Positions 10,230 through 36,991 of a stretch of 41,543 nucleotides of DNA are shown one piece after another (within the stretch, counting starts at the first letter, position 1; each line of letters starts with the position of its first letter). The notes beneath the pieces are model-generated. The model was not told where the DNA came from, made no database searches, and saw only the letters and a program-made list of their open reading frames with translations. The stretch spans positions 1 through 41,543 of the IMG/VR virus record IMGVR_UViG_3300003885_000012, one strand, 5' to 3'. The position numbers were made by a program, and so were the translations under genes. The stretch is from a virus.

Positions 10230-10694
10230 ATGAAAGTTAGAATATTCAAAAAAGACGAGTCGATTCTAAAACTTTCTACACTTATAGGGTCATGGATGAC
10301 TGAGTGTAAAATGAAAGAATTTGGAGTACATCTTAACCTTGTGGAATTCTTTGAAGATTTTAAATCTCTTATTGCTTTAGATAACAAAGATTTGATGGTA
10401 TTAGAAGTTGATAACAAGATAGTTGGGCTTATGGGCTTAATCTTTTTTAAAAGTCCAACAGGGCTTCAATATTTCACACAAGATCGGCATTGGTATATAA
10501 TGCCTGAATACAGAGGAAATGGTCTTAAAATGATCGCTATGGCTGAAGAATGGGCGAAGGATAAGAAATGTTCTCATCTGTTGTTAAGTGTCAACATGAT
10601 GGCAAGTAATATGCATGACAGAACATGCAAAGTTTATGAAAAAAAAGGCATGCAAAAATTTGAGATAACCTATATAAAAAAGGTGGGTGATTAA
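10230..10694 (+). CDS. GNAT-family N-acetyltransferase
   Basis: A 154-residue protein with the GNAT order: NKIVGLMGLIFF (strand pair, ~residues 65-77), HWYIMPEYRGNGLKMIAMAEEWAKDKKCSHLLLSVN (motif A region with an R-G-N-G acetyl-CoA turn, ~86-122) and VYEKKGMQKFEITYIKKV at the C-terminus (motif B). It starts four bases after the fibre gene stop. Phage copies among virion genes are common, but the acceptor is usually unknown. Confidence 0.82.
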   Translation: MKVRIFKKDESILKLSTLIGSWMTECKMKEFGVHLNLVEFFEDFKSLIALDNKDLMVLEVDNKIVGLMGLIFFKSPTGLQYFTQDRHWYIMPEYRGNGLKMIAMAEEWAKDKKCSHLLLSVNMMASNMHDRTCKVYEKKGMQKFEITYIKKVGD

Positions 10695-23047: not shown

Positions 23048-23677
23048 TTATAATTTTTCGTTTACAAGTTGGCCATCTATCCAACTTTTTATCACCAATC
23101 TCTCTATCTTTGTCCAATATTTACAAGCCAGAACCTTTTTAGTTTCAGGGATTTTACTTAATTTCTCCCTAATTTCGTCACTGCATCCATCTTCTATCGC
23201 TTTGGACACATCACAAAAACCAAAGAGCATCATTTTTTCTATCCAATAAGATCGTTCAATTTGACAATCAGGTGATATTCTTAATAATTTGCAAGTTATT
23301 TTTTTGAAATAAATATGATAAGAAAAACTGATATCCCCGGCTGAGCTGATATCCCCGCCTGAGTTGATATCCCCGTCTGATCTGATATCCCCGCCTGAGT
23401 TGATATCCCCGTCTGAGCTAATATACCCGCCTGAGTTGATATCCCCGTCTGAGCTAATATACCCGTCTGAGTTGATATGCCCGTCTGAGCTGATATCCCC
23501 ATCTGAGTTGATATGCCCGTCTGAGCTGATATGCCCGTCTGAGTTGATATCCCCGTCTGAGCTGATATCCCCGGCTTGTATTTTCCCTGTTACTATGCAA
23601 TCATTTTCGAATATTACTTTTCTATCGAAAATGATATTTCCCTCTATCCTCGTTTCTGTAATAATCTTTTCTTTCAT
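23048..23677 (-). CDS. Hexapeptide-repeat (beta-helix-like) protein
   Basis: A 209-residue protein. Residues 1-36 form a short beta-rich start, residues 37-114 are thirteen tandem hexapeptides of the form (D/H/Y)-I-(S/N/R)-S-(D/G/A)-G, and residues ~120-209 form a helical C-terminal domain with several Cys. Regular I-x-S-x-G hexapeptides suggest a parallel beta-helix or bactofilin-like stack in which each unit adds a rung. AAAGGAG precedes the ATG; the gene follows the ribbon-helix-helix gene by one base. Function unknown. Confidence 0.75.
   Translation of the reverse strand: MKEKIITETRIEGNIIFDRKVIFENDCIVTGKIQAGDISSDGDINSDGHISSDGHINSDGDISSDGHINSDGYISSDGDINSGGYISSDGDINSGGDIRSDGDINSGGDISSAGDISFSYHIYFKKITCKLLRISPDCQIERSYWIEKMMLFGFCDVSKAIEDGCSDEIREKLSKIPETKKVLACKYWTKIERLVIKSWIDGQLVNEKL
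23336..23569 (-). repeat. Tandem 18-bp repeats coding for hexapeptides
   Basis: Thirteen in-frame 18-bp units with nearly identical DNA (core GATATCCCCGTCTGAG on the plus strand and close variants). Units alternate between I-S-S-D-G and I-N-S-(D/G)-G, giving a higher-order 36-bp period. Near-identity at silent sites points to recent expansion, and unit gain or loss would keep the frame. Confidence 0.92.
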
Positions 23678-23875: not shown

Positions 23876-24586
23876 TTATTGTCCACATTGGCATGGTTTA
23901 CGCCAGCCAAAAAAGTCTGTTTGCTTTTCTTTTACAAGACTATCCAATGGTGCATCTCTGAGATAAAAAGGTTTCTTTCCTTTTTCTTTCCTCCTTTCCA
24001 AAAATTCATCCTCTATCCGTTTGGTCTTACACCACAAGTTAGGGTAATCGTCCCTTAAATGTATAAATTCACTTGGTTTTTGATAAGGGCAATAAAAACA
24101 TCCTGATTTTCTCGGCAAGGGCAACCCTTTGTCTAAGATGATTTTTTCACATCCCTTTCTGTCTATCTTTCTTTCTATTAAAGGATTTTCATTATAAACG
24201 TCAAAGTCCTCTGATGGCTTTGCTCTATGCCTTTCCCCGTAGTCAAATCCTATATATACTATACAGGGTCTCTTGAAATACCTGTACATCGGCTTAATTT
24301 TAAATTTAGCAGTACACCATCTCGGAGACCTTGATGGCATTATCCGGTATTTATGACAATAATCTGTAAGACTTATGCCCAACTTTTCATCATCTACAGT
24401 TTTTAAAATGGTAATCGGGAAATGTCTTTGTAACATCTCAACGTACTCATACGTCTCGGGATAGTCTCCACCATGATCTACAAATACAGACTCAAATTCT
24501 GCATTTTGATGATGGAGTAAAATCATCATAGCGATAGAATTAATTCCGCCTCCATAAGACAGATATTTGTAAATTTTATCTTCCAA
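23876..24586 (-). CDS. PP-loop enzyme of the PAPS-reductase family
   Basis: Start TTG at 24586 is chosen because GAGGGGGTGA lies six bases upstream. An in-frame ATG at 24634 lies between the -10 and -35 of the promoter and would not be transcribed. The 236-residue product has a PP-loop (SYGGGINS), the R-x-x-R-WCTAKFKIKP segment typical of PAPS-reductase-like proteins, and Cys pairs CFYC and CQC. In the cell such proteins activate substrates by adenylation or handle sulfate. Phage copies are often tied to nucleic-acid modification, but the substrate is unknown here. Confidence 0.8.
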   Translation of the reverse strand: MEDKIYKYLSYGGGINSIAMMILLHHQNAEFESVFVDHGGDYPETYEYVEMLQRHFPITILKTVDDEKLGISLTDYCHKYRIMPSRSPRWCTAKFKIKPMYRYFKRPCIVYIGFDYGERHRAKPSEDFDVYNENPLIERKIDRKGCEKIILDKGLPLPRKSGCFYCPYQKPSEFIHLRDDYPNLWCKTKRIEDEFLERRKEKGKKPFYLRDAPLDSLVKEKQTDFFGWRKPCQCGQ

Positions 24587-24625
24587 TTTTTCACCCCCTC
24601 TCAGGCTAATCTCATCATGTAACAC

Positions 24626-24654
24626 AATATACACCTACACATAATATATGTCAA
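24626..24654 (-). promoter_or_regulatory. Leftward promoter for the PP-loop operon
   Basis: Leftward TTGACA (24654-24649), 17-base spacer and TATATT (24631-24626), the same near-consensus boxes as the promoter at 23011-23039. The predicted start is near 24619, giving a leader of about 33 bases to the TTG start. Confidence 0.82.
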
Positions 24655-24878: not shown

Positions 24879-25520
24879 ATGAAAAACAAAGATAAAATAA
24901 TTCTTCATTTGTGCTCAGGAGAAAAAGGTTCTGATACTTTACCTTATCGTGAGGCAGGATATGATGTAAGATTAATAGGGAAAAATATAGGAGTAGAAAA
25001 TTATCATCCTCCTGAAAATGTATATGGCATTATTGCAAATCCACCTTGTACTAATTTTTCTTTTGCAAAATCTAACTCCAGATATCCCCGGGATATGAGA
25101 GAAGCAATGAGATTAGTAAAAGAATGTCTCAGAATAATTTGGGAATGTCAATATGATTTACCGACTCCGTTAGCCAAGCGAACCAATCTTAAATTCTGGA
25201 TGCTCGAGAATCCTTTTGGGTTGTTAAGGCGTTATCTCGGTCATGCTGTCATGGTATATCACCCGTATGAATATGGGGACCCATACCAAAAGAAAACTTG
25301 CATATGGGGATTTTTTAATATTCCTAAAAAAAATCCATGTTCTGAATTTAAAAAAGATTATATACATACAATATCCCCCAATGGAAAGCCATTGAAAAGA
25401 TTCGATCAATTACTGAACAAAGAATTTAATTACCAAGACAGTAAATCTATGTCCAGACAGGAGAGAAGGTCTATATGCTCTCCTGGATTTGCAAAGGCAT
25501 TTTTTAAGGCAAATAAATAA
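24879..25520 (+). CDS. C5-cytosine-methyltransferase-like protein
   Basis: A 213-residue protein. LHLCSGEKG (residues ~8-16) resembles the AdoMet-binding motif I, NPPCTNFSF (~54-62) holds the PPC catalytic Cys of C5-cytosine methyltransferases, and MLENPFG (~107-113) fits the ENP/ENV motif. The usual target-recognition domain is absent, and the protein is half the length of standard enzymes, as in several short phage members. It could modify phage DNA or act on a nucleotide. Its stop overlaps the next ATG (AATAATGATAG region). Confidence 0.75.
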   Translation: MKNKDKIILHLCSGEKGSDTLPYREAGYDVRLIGKNIGVENYHPPENVYGIIANPPCTNFSFAKSNSRYPRDMREAMRLVKECLRIIWECQYDLPTPLAKRTNLKFWMLENPFGLLRRYLGHAVMVYHPYEYGDPYQKKTCIWGFFNIPKKNPCSEFKKDYIHTISPNGKPLKRFDQLLNKEFNYQDSKSMSRQERRSICSPGFAKAFFKANK

Positions 25521-26320
25521 TGATAGAAGAAGATCAAGTAAAAACAAAAAGCGGAGCTATTTTATTATCTCGATCTTTAATGGAAAGTTGTGTTTTTCAG
25601 GATGAAAATTTATTAAAAGTTTGGATTTGGTGTCTATTGAAAGCCAGCCACAAAGATAACTTTTTCCCTATGAGAACAGGGAGAGGAAGTACAATCGTAA
25701 ACGTCAAAAGAGGACAGTTTGTTTTTGGACGGAAACAAGCAGCCAAAGAATTAAGGATGAAACCCAGTTCTGTGCAAGATAGGATGAAAAAATTACAAAA
25801 CCTTCAAAATCTCGACATCCAAAGCAACACCCATTACTCTATCGTAACTATTTGTAATTATGACTATTACCAGAACTTAGAAAACTACAAAGGACAGGCA
25901 ACCCGTCAACCAACCGTCAACCAACCGTCAACCAACCGTCAACCAACCGTCACATACAATAATGTTAATAATGTTAAGAATGAAGAGAATAAAGAAAAAA
26001 CCTTTCATCCCAACTCTGATGAGTTGCGACTAAGCGAGTTGCTTTGGACTTTAATTTTAAAAAGGAATCCTAACCATAAAAAGCCAAATCTCCAAAACTG
26101 GGCTAAACATATTTCTTTGATGATTCGGGTCGATAAAAGAATTACCGGGGAAATAGAAAAAATTATCCGCTGGTGTCAAGATGATTTGTTTTGGCAGAAT
26201 AATATTTTGAGTACAGACAAACTTAGAAAACAGTATGATCAGCTCAAACTCAAAATGGAAGCACCGGATAAAGATGAAATAAACTTTGATTTTCTAAAGG
26301 AGGAAAACAATGACAAATAA
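25520..26320 (+). CDS. Replication initiator, lambda-O-like winged-helix protein
   Basis: A 266-residue protein. The N-terminal ~125 residues fit phage replisome organisers: VFQDENLLKVWIWCLLKASHKDN, VNVKRGQFVFGRKQAAKELRMKPSSVQDRMKKLQN and YSIVTICNYDYYQ (winged-helix DNA-binding type). Residues ~128-145 are a Gln/Pro/Thr/Asn linker coded by 11-bp iterons. The C-terminal ~100 residues are helical and likely bind the helicase loader. As in lambda O, the origin seems to lie inside the gene. It overlaps the next gene by 11 bases. Confidence 0.82.
   Translation: MIEEDQVKTKSGAILLSRSLMESCVFQDENLLKVWIWCLLKASHKDNFFPMRTGRGSTIVNVKRGQFVFGRKQAAKELRMKPSSVQDRMKKLQNLQNLDIQSNTHYSIVTICNYDYYQNLENYKGQATRQPTVNQPSTNRQPTVTYNNVNNVKNEENKEKTFHPNSDELRLSELLWTLILKRNPNHKKPNLQNWAKHISLMIRVDKRITGEIEKIIRWCQDDLFWQNNILSTDKLRKQYDQLKLKMEAPDKDEINFDFLKEENNDK
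25903..25952 (+). repeat. 11-bp iterons, probable replication origin
   Basis: Four perfect, contiguous copies of CCGTCAACCAA (25903-25946) followed by a partial fifth (CCGTCA). The 11-bp period matches about one DNA turn, so bound initiator molecules would lie on one face. Since 11 is not a multiple of three, the repeat is read in successive frames as QPTV, NQPST and NRQPTV, which are all tolerated in a flexible linker. Position inside the initiator gene is the lambda-type arrangement. Confidence 0.82.
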
Positions 26321-31856: not shown

Positions 31857-31986
31857 TAGCTGCACATGGTATGCCATATATTTACCTTATTTATGGTAAC
31901 ACTCCTAACTCATTGATATCACTAACAAATATAATTTAAAATAATATTATCCTGCCAAAACCAGTAATTCCCAGTACTTTAAAATT

Positions 31987-32113
31987 GAGCAACTTAATGC
32001 TCACTTTCTCCTGCTAAAATCACCAAATACCCAAATTACTCAACAATATCAACGTCTTAGACCATAGCAAGTTCTTGCTCACCTTTTTTACCCGTTTGAG
32101 CAACTAATTGCTC
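31987..32113. repeat. Three GAGCAA-N4-TTGCTC dyads
   Basis: GAGCAA-CTTA-ATGCTC (31987-32002, one mismatch), AGCAA-GTTC-TTGCT (32066-32079) and GAGCAA-CTAA-TTGCTC (32098-32113, perfect). Each is followed by CAC or CACCTT, so the copies also share a direct repeat. The fixed four-base spacer suggests sites for a dimeric DNA-binding protein. Confidence 0.75.
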
Positions 32114-32361
32114 ACCTTGTCTATCAATCTACTCTGTGACAATTATTGTCAGTAAATCCCCAAAAACCACAACATATGGTATACCAGTATTTGTCACCAC
32201 AAGACAAATATCGTCACTCACTCACATCACCACCACATCTTGTATACCACCACACCAGCTACCACCACATCATCCACAAACTCACCACAGCCCCTATGTT
32301 GTACGATCTCACACAATCACATACTCTACGATCGCCCCATAACATCATCTATTACTCCCTC

Positions 32362-32390
32362 TTGCATATCACCACAATATATAGTATATT
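32362..32390 (+). promoter_or_regulatory. Rightward promoter of the terS-like gene
   Basis: TTGCAT (32362-32367), 17-base spacer and TATATT (32385-32390). The start of transcription, six to seven bases past the -10 box, falls on the ATG at 32397. The mRNA would therefore be leaderless, in line with the absence of a Shine-Dalgarno box. Confidence 0.65.
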
Positions 32391-32396
32391 ATTGTC

Positions 32397-32987
32397 ATGT
32401 CAGTCACAAAAAAAGCCAAAATGCCCCTCAAAAATACCTTGCGTCAACATATTGACGGCAAACTCTCTAAACCAGCCAATGTTACCATTGCTATGTCGGA
32501 GTACGGTAAGGTAGATATATCTCTCGCCCTCAAACTCAAATTCGTCAATGGTTTGACAGATTCCGAAATTGCAAACCAGTTCGGCGTGACCAAACAGGCT
32601 ATAAATCAACAACTCGCACCATTTCGGAGACTTTTAGCAGGAGAAGGACTTCTAAATGCTTACCGTCAAAACTTTGACAAAATACTTGAGAATGTAAGTA
32701 TGGAGTTACTTTTCGACCTTCTTGATCCAGCCAAAAGAAAGTCCGCCAGCCTCAACAATGTAGCCTATGCTTTTACTCAGATAAATCAAGCACTTAGACT
32801 ACATCGTGGAGAATCTACTTTAACTGTGTCATATGCCGCAATCAGAGATGATGAGATAGCTGCTGTTAGATCTCAGCGTATCAGACAAGGCAAGAGAGAG
32901 GCACTCGAGGATAAGATTAATGCAATTAAGCGTCAAATAATTGACGTTACTCCCTCCAAACCACCGCAAAGGGATGACAACGTGTGA
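32397..32987 (+). CDS. HTH protein, probable small terminase subunit
   Basis: A 196-residue protein with a helix-turn-helix at ~50-75 (LALKLKFVNGLTDSEIANQFGVTKQAINQQL), a helical centre (SLNNVAYAFTQINQALRLHRGEST, ~120-143) and a basic C-terminus. This order matches phage small terminase subunits, which bind pac DNA and recruit the large subunit. The large terminase gene lies 2.5 kb downstream. Four GTCAA-N4-TTGAC dyads lie inside the gene. It could instead be a transcription regulator, or do both. No ribosome-binding site is seen. Confidence 0.65.
   Translation: MSVTKKAKMPLKNTLRQHIDGKLSKPANVTIAMSEYGKVDISLALKLKFVNGLTDSEIANQFGVTKQAINQQLAPFRRLLAGEGLLNAYRQNFDKILENVSMELLFDLLDPAKRKSASLNNVAYAFTQINQALRLHRGESTLTVSYAAIRDDEIAAVRSQRIRQGKREALEDKINAIKRQIIDVTPSKPPQRDDNV
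32442..32945. repeat. Four GTCAA-N4-TTGAC dyads within the terS-like gene
   Basis: Perfect dyads with spacers CATA (32443-32456), TGGT (32544-32557), AACT (32665-32678) and ATAA (32932-32945). The first and last extend to CGTCAA/TTGACG. A fifth perfect copy (spacer TATT, 34752-34765) lies in the promoter at 34745-34773. I found no other perfect copy in the genome by eye. A fixed geometry with variable spacer letters points to protein-binding sites rather than codon constraint. Confidence 0.85.
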
Positions 32988-33202
32988 TATCTCTTACAAC
33001 CACAAGATGTAGTGGTGTCATCGCCTTTCATACCACAACTTTAGTTCCTATAACAGCCATTATGTTAACTATTAACGATTCTTATGGCTATGCCTACTAT
33101 GATAAGGGTGGGGTACTGGCCGGGGTATGGGGGGGAATACCAGAGCCAATGTATATATTATATCCCCCTCTAAATACGAGAATAACAAAAGGCTTGCCGT
33201 AG
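32984..33202 (+). CDS. Doubtful small protein after the terS-like gene
   Basis: A GTG at 32984 overlaps the terS-like stop (GTGTGA) and opens a 72-codon frame with a hydrophobic first half (CSGVIAFHTTTLVPITAIMLTI) and a Gly/Pro-rich second half. A weak AGGGATG box precedes it. The overlap favours coupled translation, but composition is not convincing. Confidence 0.3.
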   Translation: MISLTTTRCSGVIAFHTTTLVPITAIMLTINDSYGYAYYDKGGVLAGVWGGIPEPMYILYPPLNTRITKGLP

Positions 33203-33267
33203 AAAGATAATCCTTGACAATATAAATGTTTGGTATAACTTGCATTTTCAGGAAAGGTGGTGATGAT

Positions 33268-33471
33268 ATGGACATAGACTTGCAACATTTTAGGAAGTTT
33301 AAGGTAAAATCCAATTTTGTAGTGGGAGAAGATGGTAAGTTGGAGAAAGAGAAAAAGTATTTGGCCAGGCATCCGGAGAGACCGTTGAGGTATGCTGTGG
33401 TGGCGAGGCGGGTATGGGAAGAGAAGGGAGTGAAGGTGTTGAAGTTTTCAGTGGAGGTTGTGAGATATTAA
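33268..33471 (+). CDS. Small basic protein, 67 residues
   Basis: Start 33268 is chosen because AGGTGG lies about nine bases upstream; a start at 33226 would overlap the likely promoter (TGGTATAAC, an extended -10 at 33231-33239). The product is basic and beta-like at the end (GVKVLKFSVEVVRY). Function unknown. Confidence 0.55.
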   Translation: MDIDLQHFRKFKVKSNFVVGEDGKLEKEKKYLARHPERPLRYAVVARRVWEEKGVKVLKFSVEVVRY

Positions 33472-33745
33472 GAGATTCGGTATTTCCGAATGTGTAGTAT
33501 GTAAGCTAGAGATAAAGAGAGTCAAACCAAGCTCGGCGACTTAAACGCTTCGCTAAAATTAATGTATTAATTTTTAGCATATTTTGAAAGTTTTGTCAAG
33601 TGCTAATTCTTGGAAGAGGGAAGATTATTTATCTTATTTTGTGTGTGTGTATTGAAATTCTTAGAGTATTTTAGGTTTATGTGGTTTCTTAGAGCTTTTA
33701 TTAAGGCAAGTCGTTTGATGTGGTTTTTATCCATTTTAAATTATG
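33472..33745. other. Non-coding stretch with two hairpins
   Basis: ATTCGG-N5-CCGAAT lies seven bases after the preceding gene and could end its transcript, although a U-run is lacking. An A+T-rich hairpin pairs GCTAAAATTAAT with ATTAATTTTTAGC around 33553-33579. A leftward 43-codon frame is listed separately. I see nothing else. Confidence 0.5.
33603..33734 (-). CDS. Possible 43-residue protein
   Basis: A leftward ATG at 33734, directly after the tRNA-like gene, opens a 43-codon basic helical frame (MDKNHIKRLALIKALRNHI onward). It has no Shine-Dalgarno box and could only be translated from the tRNA transcript, so this is uncertain. Confidence 0.28.
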   Translation of the reverse strand: MDKNHIKRLALIKALRNHINLKYSKNFNTHTQNKINNLPSSKN

Positions 33746-33821
33746 TGGGTTAGGAGGGAATTGAACCCTCAACAGCCGGAGTATTAAATCCGGTGCTCTA
33801 CCAATTTGAGCTGACTAACCC
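33746..33821 (-). tRNA. tRNA-like gene with an eight-base anticodon loop
   Basis: Reading leftward: acceptor stem GGGTTAG/CTAACCC (7 bp), D-stem GCTC/GAGC with GG in the loop, anticodon stem CCGGA/TCCGG, T-stem GAGGG/CCCTC with loop TTCAATT, discriminator A and no encoded CCA. The anticodon loop is TTTAATAC, eight bases instead of seven, and the acceptor-D linker is TCA instead of two bases. With U33 and A37 kept, the reading element could be the four bases UAAU, or the triplet UAA or AAU. The amino acid cannot be assigned. It may be a functional variant, a decayed tRNA, or contain a sequence error. Confidence 0.68.
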
Positions 33822-33833
33822 ATTTTGGTAACC

Positions 33834-34085
33834 TCACTCCCTTATTTTTTTTCCTTCCGTGTATTCAATATAGCAATCACAATTAAAGTCTTCATTATCT
33901 GGATTTTTTTTATGAAAATCGCAAATATGTTCTATTTCTTCTACTCCTTCCCATCTATCTCTCGAATCTTTTCCGCAATTATAACAATGCCAATGACTGC
34001 ATGGAATAAGAATGTAAGCTCCTCCACAGGAACAACTTTCCGCAATTGGGATACTTGGTCTGTATCTATGTGGGGCATATACCAT
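33834..34085 (-). CDS. Zinc-binding protein between tRNA-like sequences
   Basis: An 83-residue protein with many Cys and His: ESCSCGGAYILIPCSHWHCYNCGKD (~17-41) and HICDFHKKN...CDCYIEY near the C-terminus, enough for two metal sites. It is flanked on the 3' side by the complete tRNA-like gene and on the 5' side by a fragment of the same tRNA start. No clear box precedes the ATG. Function unknown. Confidence 0.55.
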   Translation of the reverse strand: MVYAPHRYRPSIPIAESCSCGGAYILIPCSHWHCYNCGKDSRDRWEGVEEIEHICDFHKKNPDNEDFNCDCYIEYTEGKKIRE

Positions 34086-34110
34086 AATTTTTTCTGCTCT
34101 TTTTGTTTAT

Positions 34111-34125
34111 ATTGAGCTACTAACC
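34111..34125 (-). repeat. Fragment of a tRNA 5' end
   Basis: Leftward GGGTTAGTAGCTCAA repeats the start of the tRNA-like gene (GGGTTAGTCAGCTCAA) without the extra C, so the canonical two-base acceptor-D linker is present. GAGC follows after 14 bases, giving a possible D-stem, but no anticodon or T arm follows. It looks like a remnant of a second tRNA or a mark of insertion. Confidence 0.6.
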
Positions 34126-34134
34126 CACATATTG

Positions 34135-34300
34135 GGGGGCCTCCTATCCTGCGAAGGGGATTTAAGCAGGAAGGGACTACTAAGTCCTTTGTCGGAGGAT
34201 TAGTGTATTAAAGGGAGCCGGGGGCAGACGTTAGCCTGCTTTTACATTTTTCCTATTAAAGGTAGTATATGCATCTTTTATCTACCCCGGCATATCTAAT
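34135..34300 (-). ncRNA. Structured RNA region of unknown family
   Basis: No gene is seen between 34126 and 34382. In the leftward sense GCCGGGG (34291-34285) pairs with CCCCGGC (34223-34217), enclosing GCAGGC-UAAC-GUCUGC (34239-34224), whose middle pair is G-U only on this strand. A second domain is a three-way junction: outer CCTCC/GGAGG (34198-34194 with 34144-34140) holding GGACT/AGTCC (34187-34183 with 34178-34174) and CCTGC/GCAGG (34170-34166 with 34152-34148). An extended -10 box lies just upstream. It matches no RNA family I know. Confidence 0.55.
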
Positions 34301-34303
34301 AAA

Positions 34304-34312
34304 ATTATACCA
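34304..34312 (-). promoter_or_regulatory. Extended -10 promoter ahead of the structured RNA and tRNA
   Basis: Leftward TGGTATAAT at 34312-34304 is an extended -10 element (TG-N-TATAAT). No good -35 lies upstream, as is usual for this class. Transcription would begin near 34297, at the first stem of the structured region. Confidence 0.5.
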
Positions 34313-34382
34313 CCCTGTCTATCCTTATGTTGATCAAGGAAGAGTCCCCATGGTTAGTCTCTTGTCAACAGGGCTGGTAATT

Positions 34383-34685
34383 CTAATCAGGATCATATTC
34401 AACGTGTATATGTGTTCTTTCGAGTACTACATCATAGTTTGAACCTAAAGACTCTTTAAGTTCTTTTAATACTAATTCTTTTTGCATTTGAGAGGGAAAG
34501 TAGTAAGTACGAAAGTCTACAGCCAGTCCAAATAAATGGAGACTGCCTGCTGAATGGATACCATCAATACCTGATGTTACTACGAGTTCCTGCCCGTTTA
34601 GTTTCCAGATTTTCTCTGCCGCTATAAGCACGGGTCTAATTTTTAAATTTAGTCCTGCGAGGACAGTTCCTGGTTTGATTTTCAT
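34383..34685 (-). CDS. M15-family peptidase, probable endolysin
   Basis: A 100-residue protein with the zinc-site motifs of D,D-carboxypeptidase/L-alanyl-D-glutamate peptidases: TSGIDGIHSAGSLHLFGLAVDFR (His50 and Asp57 as zinc ligands by count) and a C-terminal HIHVEYD (third His). It is shorter than many VanY-like lysins, so it is close to the minimal catalytic domain with no wall-binding part. No Shine-Dalgarno box is present; the promoter places the transcript start at the ATG. Confidence 0.85.
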   Translation of the reverse strand: MKIKPGTVLAGLNLKIRPVLIAAEKIWKLNGQELVVTSGIDGIHSAGSLHLFGLAVDFRTYYFPSQMQKELVLKELKESLGSNYDVVLERTHIHVEYDPD

Positions 34686-34691
34686 AATACT

Positions 34692-34720
34692 AATGTATGA
34701 TATTTGCGGGTTAAAGTCAA
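34692..34720 (-). promoter_or_regulatory. Leftward promoter of the lysin gene
   Basis: TTGACT (34720-34715), 17-base spacer and TACATT (34697-34692). The expected transcript start, 34685-34686, falls on the lysin ATG, so the mRNA would be leaderless. Confidence 0.6.
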
Positions 34721-34744
34721 GGATTATTTTATTTTATTTTTTCC

Positions 34745-34773
34745 TTGACATGTCAATATTTTGACAGTATATT
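34745..34773 (+). promoter_or_regulatory. Rightward promoter with an embedded GTCAA-N4-TTGAC operator
   Basis: TTGACA (34745-34750), 17-base spacer and TATATT (34768-34773). The spacer holds the dyad GTCAA-TATT-TTGAC (34752-34765), and the -35 is also part of the palindrome TTGACATGTCAA (34745-34756). A protein bound to the dyad would block RNA polymerase directly. The predicted start coincides with ATG 34780. Confidence 0.8.
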
Positions 34774-34779
34774 ATAATC

Positions 34780-35076
34780 ATGGAAGATCAAAGGACATGT
34801 AAAGATTGCTTTAACTGCAAAACTAAGATTACATTTAAGATTAACAGGGGAAACAAATATACTGGAAGTAGAATTGGCCTTCCCAAGAATCCTAAGATGG
34901 AGTATCTGCTAAACAAGATAATTGTTTTTGGAAGTGTAAGGTGTACTAAAGGAATGTGGCAGATGACAAAGAAGAAAGAAGAGAAAGTTTACAAGAGTTT
35001 TAAGGGCTTCATGGATGGCAATATAAAGTTGACAGATGCCGAAAGGTGTCCTGAGTTTGATGGGGAAAGATATTAG
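34780..35076 (+). CDS. Small Cys-rich protein, likely leaderless
   Basis: A 98-residue protein with CKDCFNCKTK at residues 7-16, RCTKGMW (~54-60) and a C-terminal RCPEFDG. This C...C, RC-x-x-G-x-W and CP-x-FDG pattern is seen in small phage and bacterial proteins of unknown role. It is the first gene of the packaging operon and lies under the operator-bearing promoter. No ribosome-binding site can exist if transcription starts at the predicted base. Confidence 0.65.
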   Translation: MEDQRTCKDCFNCKTKITFKINRGNKYTGSRIGLPKNPKMEYLLNKIIVFGSVRCTKGMWQMTKKKEEKVYKSFKGFMDGNIKLTDAERCPEFDGERY

Positions 35077-35494: not shown

Positions 35495-36991
35495 ATGGAT
35501 AATGCTAAAAAACTAAAAGAATTAGAAGAATTAGAAACTGAATTAAAACGGCTGGACAGAGAAGATAAAGAAGATATCAGGAAAGAGTTAAAAGCTAAAA
35601 AGGAGGGACAAAAGTATATACAGGATCACAAAATAGAGTTTTTTGGTATTGTTGATCCTAAAAGAGGATTAAAGGGACCTAACCCTAAACAAAAATTGCT
35701 TTTAGATGCATGGATGAATCCAATGTATAACGTATTTACGTTCACGGGAGCAAATAAAAGTGGCAAAACTTGTATAGAAATTGTGATTTTGGAGTCTATG
35801 ATGTTTGGTTATTTTCCTTGGGATAAAGGAAAAACCCCAATAAGTAAACCTCCTGTTAAGATACGTTGGGTAGGACAGGATTGGGAGAACCATATCAAAA
35901 CTGTTATGGTTAGTGCTATTGAAGAATGGTGGCCGAAAAACAGGAAGGTCGAAACCCATAAAAACAATACAGGAGTAAAGTCATACTGGAAAGATTTAGA
36001 AACCGGTTCCACCATGGAACTGATGTCGAATAAACAAGAAGTAGATGTTTTTGAAGGTTGGGATGGACAAGTTGTAGCTTACGATGAACCTCCGAGACGT
36101 GAGATAAGAATAGCTTGTGCCAGAGGATTAGCTGTTAGTGGAGGAAGGGAATTATTTGGTGCAACACTTTTAAAAGAACCATGGATACACAGGGAAGTAA
36201 TAAACGCTGTAAATACAGATGGAACTCCTAAAAAGTCTATTTTTAATGTTCATGGAACTATATATGATAACCTTGATTACGGTTTAAGCAAAAAAGGCAT
36301 TGAAAGTTTTGCTGACAAGTTAACTGAAGAAGAAAAACAAGTTCGAATTTTCGGAAAACCGTCATATCTAAGCGGATTAATTTATGGCGAATTTGACCGT
36401 CAAATCCATCTCAAACAAAGATTTGATATTCCTCTCGATTGTATAGTCGATATTGCCATAGATACACATCCTTCCAAAGAGCAGGCAGTTTTATTCATGA
36501 CTACAGATCCCCGTAATTATAAATATCTTATAGATGAAATATGGTCTCATGGTGACGGAACTTGGTTAGGTGAAGAAATCATGAGAATAATTAATCGTAA
36601 TTCATACAGAGTTAACACTATTCTTATAGATCACAGTGCTAAAGGCGATTCTAATAACATGTTTACGACATACGAAAAGATAGATAATGTTTTGCATAGA
36701 TATGGTCACTCATTGAGTACATACAAAAAGGATGAAGATGGTGGTATCAAGTCTGTCAGAACATTGCTTAAGGGTCCTAATAATGAACCTGCGTTGTTTA
36801 TTTTCAGTGATTTAGCAAGAACGATTTTTGAAATAGAGGGATATATGATAGACCCCAAAACAGGCAAAACGCAAGATAAAGATAATGATATGATGGATAA
36901 TCTGTATGCTTTGGCTAATGAAGATACTCAATGGTTTGAGGATAGGCTTAAGCGAAGCACAGCTAAACCTGTAAATTGGAAGGTGGCATAA
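35495..36991 (+). CDS. terL: Terminase large subunit
   Basis: A 498-residue protein with an N-terminal coiled coil (~1-35), Walker A GANKSGKT (85-92), Walker B VVAYDEPP (~190-197) and a C-terminal RNase-H-type nuclease with VDIAIDTHP, ILIDHSAKGDS and DNDMMDNLYAL as the acidic sites. It powers DNA entry through the portal and cuts the concatemer. Length and motif order match headful and cos enzymes alike. Its stop overlaps the next ATG (TAATG). Confidence 0.92.
   Translation: MDNAKKLKELEELETELKRLDREDKEDIRKELKAKKEGQKYIQDHKIEFFGIVDPKRGLKGPNPKQKLLLDAWMNPMYNVFTFTGANKSGKTCIEIVILESMMFGYFPWDKGKTPISKPPVKIRWVGQDWENHIKTVMVSAIEEWWPKNRKVETHKNNTGVKSYWKDLETGSTMELMSNKQEVDVFEGWDGQVVAYDEPPRREIRIACARGLAVSGGRELFGATLLKEPWIHREVINAVNTDGTPKKSIFNVHGTIYDNLDYGLSKKGIESFADKLTEEEKQVRIFGKPSYLSGLIYGEFDRQIHLKQRFDIPLDCIVDIAIDTHPSKEQAVLFMTTDPRNYKYLIDEIWSHGDGTWLGEEIMRIINRNSYRVNTILIDHSAKGDSNNMFTTYEKIDNVLHRYGHSLSTYKKDEDGGIKSVRTLLKGPNNEPALFIFSDLARTIFEIEGYMIDPKTGKTQDKDNDMMDNLYALANEDTQWFEDRLKRSTAKPVNWKVA

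What the first reader, a model, noticed from the sequence alone, without database searches (positions are those of the whole stretch)
32442..34765. Family of GTCAA-N4-TTGAC dyads in the terS-like gene and a nearby promoter
Seen: five perfect copies, each with a different four-base spacer. Four are inside the terS-like coding sequence and one sits between the -35 and -10 of the promoter at 34745. A given ten-base pattern is expected well under once in 41 kb, and I found no perfect copy elsewhere. Inferred: sites for a dimeric DNA-binding protein, either pac sites bound by the small terminase, or operators through which the HTH protein governs its own gene and the packaging operon.
Basis: partly seen in the sequence, partly recalled or inferred. 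Interest (0 to 1): 0.86.

Follow-up and report, generated by a model that had tools for sequence, protein, structure and literature searches.

The report
Repeated regulator-binding sites beside phage packaging genes
A virus of bacteria carries five copies of one short mirror-image DNA sequence, four inside the gene for a DNA-binding protein and one inside the promoter of its packaging genes, and the sequence evidence suggests they are landing sites through which that protein controls itself and the packaging genes.

Summary
Confirmed: five perfect GTCAA-N4-TTGAC dyads (32443, 32544, 32665, 32932, 34752), expected 0.06, none elsewhere even at one mismatch. Of all 5+gap+5 palindrome classes with four or more copies in this circular 41.5-kb phage, only this one clusters. 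The four inside the HTH gene are conserved as DNA: none of 30,000 synonymous recodings gave four. The fifth fills the 17-bp spacer of one of the genome's best sigma-70-type promoters, heading the operon with terL. The dyad is not unique to this phage: tight tandem pairs occur in at least 120 viral contigs (scan saturated; control palindrome 27). In 10 of 19 terL lineages the main array lies within 4 kb upstream of terL (2.2 expected, P 8e-6); a stricter count gave P 0.12. Binder: MarR regulators beside the same dyad in actinobacteria carry the recognition helix [ST]-[KR]-[QA]-A; the phage HTH protein, not a MarR, carries T-K-Q-A. I infer that it binds its own dyads and controls promoter 34745 (confidence 0.5). 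A pac role remains open (0.25). 'TerS-like' is unproven: no TerS family matched and the gene lies 2.5 kb from terL.

The parts
32443..32456 (.). dyad 1, GTCAACATATTGAC, inside the HTH gene
32544..32557 (.). dyad 2, GTCAATGGTTTGAC, inside the HTH gene, in another codon phase than the other three
32665..32678 (.). dyad 3, GTCAAAACTTTGAC, inside the HTH gene
32932..32945 (.). dyad 4, GTCAAATAATTGAC, inside the HTH gene
34752..34765 (.). dyad 5, GTCAATATTTTGAC, inside the 17-bp spacer of promoter 34745
32397..32987 (+). HTH protein P0001 (196 aa), inferred binder of the dyads; recognition helix V-T-K-Q-A-I-N-Q-Q-L
   Evidence: sub-threshold HTH matches; helix comparison
34745..34773 (+). sigma-70-type promoter TTGACA-17-TATATT
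   Evidence: 11 of 12 matches; among the four best with a 17-bp spacer in the genome
34780..35076 (+). first gene of the operon behind promoter 34745 (98 aa, unknown function)
35495..36991 (+). large terminase (terL)
   Evidence: 26.7% identity to annotated large terminases; matches the TerL profile built here

Best explanation
The five dyads are operators of a dimeric helix-turn-helix protein, most likely the one encoded by 32397-32987, which carries four of them inside its own gene. At 34752 the bound dimer would occupy the spacer between -35 and -10 of promoter 34745 and so switch the operon that starts at 34780 and holds terL, portal and capsid genes. The four sites in its own gene would give autoregulation, by blocking elongation or by looping to the 34752 site 1.8-2.3 kb away. 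Shown: the sites, their non-randomness, the DNA-level constraint, and the promoter position. Inferred: the identity of the binder, repression rather than activation, and looping.
For: Five copies against 0.06 expected. No synonymous recoding of 30,000 gives four in the gene. Dyad 5 sits in a promoter spacer. Near-array variation in other viruses shows a symmetric, helically phased binding site. In actinobacteria MarR regulators start next to the same dyad and 34 of the 35 readable dyad-adjacent MarR-like proteins carry [ST]-[KR]-[QA]-[AS] in the recognition helix against 0 of 5 distant ones. P0001 carries T-K-Q-A at that place, and its weak HTH matches among 35,624 ORFs are dominated by those dyad-adjacent MarRs. 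The combination is found in 0 of 238 HTH-shaped segments away from dyads.
Against: No binding was measured. P0001 has no known relatives, only a sub-threshold HTH, and a poor model. The dyad-adjacent MarRs are largely one or two related subfamilies and the profile was seeded with some of them, so they are few independent cases; many of the 238 background segments are not true HTHs; from memory, helices like S-R-Q-A also occur in XRE regulators. No comparable HTH was found beside the arrays of other phages. The window sites are not helically phased with one another. Twelve relatives have no dyad at all.
Confidence: 0.5

Rival explanations
1. The dyads are a packaging signal (pac or cosB-like): the HTH protein is the small terminase, its oligomer binds sites in and near its own gene, and the large terminase cuts there to start packaging.
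For: Four sites lie in an HTH gene upstream of terL, as P22 pac lies in its terS gene (review PMC9611059). The portal is P22-like. In other phages arrays lie upstream of terL (10 of 19 lineages within 4 kb), several directly upstream of TerS-like genes, mostly in gaps of median 453 bp. No other TerS candidate was recognised near terL.
Against: No TerS profile matches P0001 and it is not next to terL. TerS proteins beside arrays belong to different families with different HTHs, which should not share one code. In the L019/G016 lineage the array is 7-8 kb from terL at the head of the operon. Dyad 5 lies in a promoter spacer. Most pac-type TerS bind DNA weakly and without sequence specificity in vitro.
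Confidence: 0.25
2. The dyads are bound by another factor, a host regulator (for instance MarR-type) or another phage protein; the gene that holds four of them is incidental or a regulatory target. This includes a replication-origin or partition role.
For: The dyad is used in bacterial chromosomes beside MarR and LacI regulators. No shared phage binder was found near arrays in other viruses. A D5-like DNA-binding protein accompanies arrays in one lineage.
Against: P0001 has a matching recognition helix. The phage's O/DnaD-like replication gene is 6 kb away at 25520-26320. Clustering in one HTH gene and the adjacent operon promoter points to a local system.
Confidence: 0.18
3. Chance or a by-product of the protein sequence (repeated R-Q-x-x-D).
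For: Three of the four gene copies read R-Q-x-x-D in the same frame.
Against: The second copy is in a different codon phase; recoding and codon shuffling never give four; the fifth copy is non-coding; 0.06 expected.
Confidence: 0.02

Closest known systems
Phage repressor operators, including the dispersed stoperators of cluster A mycobacteriophages (PMC6550527, PMC9283540, found)
   Same: Several copies of one site, one overlapping a promoter and others downstream of it, beside the gene of a DNA-binding protein.
   Different: Here the site is a symmetric dyad confined to 2.3 kb, with four copies inside the regulator's own gene; stoperators are asymmetric and spread over the genome.
P22 pac site inside the small-terminase gene (PMC9611059)
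   Same: Recognition site inside an HTH gene upstream of terL in a phage with a P22-like portal.
   Different: P22 pac is one 22-bp asymmetric sequence; here there are five identical dyads, one of them in a promoter, and P0001 matches no TerS family.
MarR-family autoregulators of actinobacteria
   Same: The same GTCAA-N4-TTGAC dyad next to the regulator gene, and the recognition-helix signature [ST]-[KR]-[QA]-A.
   Different: P0001 is not a MarR by Pfam, and its sites lie inside the gene rather than upstream.
434-type phage repressor and its operators (from memory)
   Same: 14-bp dyad and a glutamine-bearing recognition helix resembling V-T-K-Q-A-I-N-Q.
   Different: Half-site GTCAA rather than ACAA; no profile match of P0001 to XRE repressors was seen. 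This comparison was not tested.

Membership tests
Small terminase (TerS) with pac in its gene | profile match to a TerS family | tested here: not met
   Pfam, PHROGs and NCBIfam give only weak, sub-threshold HTH matches
Small terminase (TerS) with pac in its gene | gene directly upstream of terL | tested here: not met
   2.5 kb and several ORFs, some on the other strand, lie between
Small terminase (TerS) with pac in its gene | packaging starts at the site | not testable with these tools
   needs read depth or genome ends
Phage operator set | site overlaps a promoter | tested here: met
   dyad 5 lies in the spacer of promoter 34745
Phage operator set | DNA-binding protein gene alongside | tested here: met
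   32397-32987 encodes an HTH of sub-threshold score with a fitting recognition helix
Phage operator set | binding and regulation demonstrated | not testable with these tools
   needs gel shift or reporter
MarR family | Pfam MarR or MarR_2 match | tested here: not met
   P0001 has no MarR match
IHF site | asymmetric WATCAANNNNTTR consensus (from memory) | tested here: not met
   G0 and C2 are nearly fixed on both arms and A4 is tolerant
Stoperator system | sites dispersed over the whole genome | tested here: not met
   all five lie within 2.3 kb

The most novel reading that the evidence does not exclude
Tandem YGTCAR-N4-YTGACR arrays upstream of terL are a widespread, undescribed control element of uncultured phages, acting in late expression or packaging and read by different HTH proteins that converged on one code; this phage is the case in which the reader protein and its sites share one gene.
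Probability: 0.2. Interest if true: 0.8.

Novelty: new variant of a known kind. Interest (0 to 1): 0.52.

Why it matters
If right, it names a regulator and its sites for the packaging operon of a phage with almost no known relatives, and gives a simple recognition code (helix [ST]-[KR]-[QA]-A for GTCAA half-sites) that can be tested in vitro. More broadly, the same tandem dyad tends to mark the region upstream of terL in many uncultured viruses, and no paper was found for it, so it is a concrete handle on late control or packaging start in viruses known only from sequence.

Tried and rejected
Relatives of P0001 in viral contigs, phages and PDB: none. A shared binder protein in array-bearing viruses by clustering and profiles, by a PHROG scan of 141 neighbouring ORFs and by a recognition-helix pattern: none. 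A D5-like DNA-binding protein accompanies arrays in one lineage only. IHF sites: essential bases do not fit; Fis was set aside on spacing, from memory. RNA hairpin: base identity is fixed and neighbouring sites peak at 16-17, 21, 23, 30-33 and 41-43 bp, which fits double-stranded binding. Back-to-back -35 elements: the first T of TTGAC is the most tolerant base, unlike a -35. Structure of P0001: mean pLDDT 46, too poor to search with. A dereplicated test on flank-limited loci gave only P 0.12 for the terL association; the test on held records gave 8e-6 but rests on one record per TerL lineage chosen by me, with TerL found by two or three profiles. Divergent against convergent placement of arrays does not differ from random, so array position alone does not prove promoters. 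Twelve relatives have no dyad.

Full report
Observation. The five GTCAA-N4-TTGAC dyads are real and perfect, at 32443, 32544, 32665, 32932 and 34752, against 0.06 expected from shuffles. No one-mismatch copy exists anywhere in the window; a degenerate search adds one doubtful match at 10590. The window is the whole virus record and has a 91-bp terminal repeat, so the map is circular and complete. Among 5+gap+5 palindrome classes (gaps 0-9) with at least four copies, this is the only one with three or more within 3 kb.

DNA-level constraint. Four dyads lie inside the ORF 32397-32987 (P0001). Three read R-Q-x-x-D in one frame; the second copy is in another codon phase. Recoding the protein with the phage's codon usage gave at most two dyads in 30,000 trials (mean 0.05), with the gene's own usage at most three, and shuffling synonymous codons within the gene at most three. 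The sites are therefore kept as DNA and are not a by-product of the protein.

Promoter. Dyad 5 lies inside the 17-bp spacer between TTGACA 34745-34750 and TATATT 34768-34773, the best promoter match of the region (11 of 12) and one of the four best with a 17-bp spacer in the genome. It precedes ATG 34780 and the co-directional run 34780, 35183, terL 35495, portal 37441, capsid 40449. A closely similar -10/ATG stretch precedes P0001 (family D5). Both start codons lie so close to the -10 that leaderless messages are likely (inference).

Surroundings. terL is supported by 26.7% identity to annotated large terminases of spring-water phages, and the portal is P22-like. P0001 shows only sub-threshold HTH matches, has no relatives, no PDB match and a poor model. 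Calling it TerS is not supported by any profile, nor by position, since it is 2.5 kb from terL.

The dyad elsewhere. A wide-spaced pair of dyads hits 37 viral contigs against 5 for a control palindrome. A tight pair saturates the scan at 120 against 27 for the control, and the control palindrome itself looks like a prophage operator (mostly 35-bp pairs in isolate records). Many viral contigs hold arrays of 3 to 11 dyads. Near arrays, one-mismatch copies are strongly enriched at position 4 (A to G or T) and position 1 (T to C), while G0 and A3 are nearly fixed and C2 mostly so. Neighbour distances peak at 16-17, 21, 23, 30-33 and 41-43 bp; distances up to about 43 bp are favoured by the search pattern, but the peaks within that range are not. 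This is the behaviour of a dimeric, sequence-specific site, YGTCAR-N4-YTGACR.

Link to terL. On records of 19 TerL lineages, the window excluded, the main array lies 0-4 kb upstream of terL in 10 (expected 2.2, P 7.6e-6) and on the upstream side in 17 (expected 9). A flank-limited count with single-linkage dereplication gave 8 of 16 against 5.3 expected (P 0.12), so the association is likely but not beyond doubt. Arrays avoid genes (11% inside long ORFs against 52% at random) and sit in gaps of median 453 bp. In the L019/G016 lineage the array heads the operon that reaches terL 7-8 kb later. In another lineage it lies beside a D5-like DNA-binding protein. No shared protein family near arrays was found, and no dyad occurs in 12 cultured or environmental relatives.

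Who binds. Tandem dyads in bacterial chromosomes lie next to MarR regulators in actinobacteria and LacI regulators in Paenibacillus, and elsewhere near ordinary genes, sometimes at several places in one genome. Searching P0001's HTH against all 35,624 ORFs held gave only weak matches, but they are dominated by those dyad-adjacent MarRs. The shared element is the recognition helix: P0001 V-T-K-Q-A-I-N-Q-Q-L; MarRs V-[ST]-R-Q-A-[MT]-[HN]-Q or V-[ST]-K-A-A-V-S-K. Of the 35 dyad-adjacent MarR-like proteins with a readable helix, 34 carry [ST]-[KR]-[QA]-[AS]; the five MarR-like proteins far from a dyad do not. In a generic HTH-shaped pattern the combination occurs in 12 of 48 segments near dyads, P0001 included, and in 0 of 238 elsewhere (many of the 238 are not true HTHs). 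This makes P0001 the best candidate binder. It is an inference from sequence comparison, the MarRs are few independent cases, and helices of this type are, from memory, not rare in XRE proteins.

Mechanism and verdict. Best reading: P0001 dimers bind the five dyads, controlling promoter 34745 of the packaging and structural operon through dyad 5 and their own gene through dyads 1-4 (roadblock or looping), confidence 0.5. A pac role (0.25) remains possible because of the position upstream of terL and the P22 precedent. Binding by a host or other factor is third (0.18). The finding is real and its function is probably of an ordinary kind (operator or packaging site); the virus-wide family of tandem arrays upstream of terL is the more novel part, and no paper was found for it.

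Noticed in passing
window 33745-33821 (-): A tRNA gene (Rfam tRNA 55.4 bits) with an enlarged anticodon loop; ARAGORN gives a four-base anticodon taat. It may be a frameshift-suppressing tRNA or a decayed one.
   Followed up: partly
window 31986-32115: A second dyad family upstream of P0001: TGAGCAACTTAATGCTCA, AGCAAGTTCTTGCT and TGAGCAACTAATTGCTCA, of the same CAA-N4-TTG build.
   Followed up: partly
window 32195-32376: CACCACA occurs six times in 180 bp of the gap upstream of P0001.
   Followed up: no
L060/L120 (one Prevotella MAG), L100, L059 and L063 genomes: Bacterial chromosomes with several tandem GTCAA-N4-TTGAC pairs per genome near unrelated genes; function unknown.
   Followed up: partly
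G005:C1:58234-58461 (record of locus L022): Eleven dyads in about 230 bp, 4.3 kb upstream of terL.
   Followed up: partly
L186, L229, L244 and L322: Viral loci with up to three paralogues of a D5-like DNA-binding protein in contigs that carry dyad arrays.
   Followed up: partly
loci L341-L367: The control palindrome GACAA-N4-TTGTC also occurs as tandem pairs, mostly 35 bp in all and mostly in isolate viral records, probably operators of a known type of prophage repressor.
   Followed up: no
window 23048-23677 (-) and 23876-24634 (-): A bactofilin-like protein (below cut-off) beside a PAPS-reductase-like protein in a phage genome.
   Followed up: no
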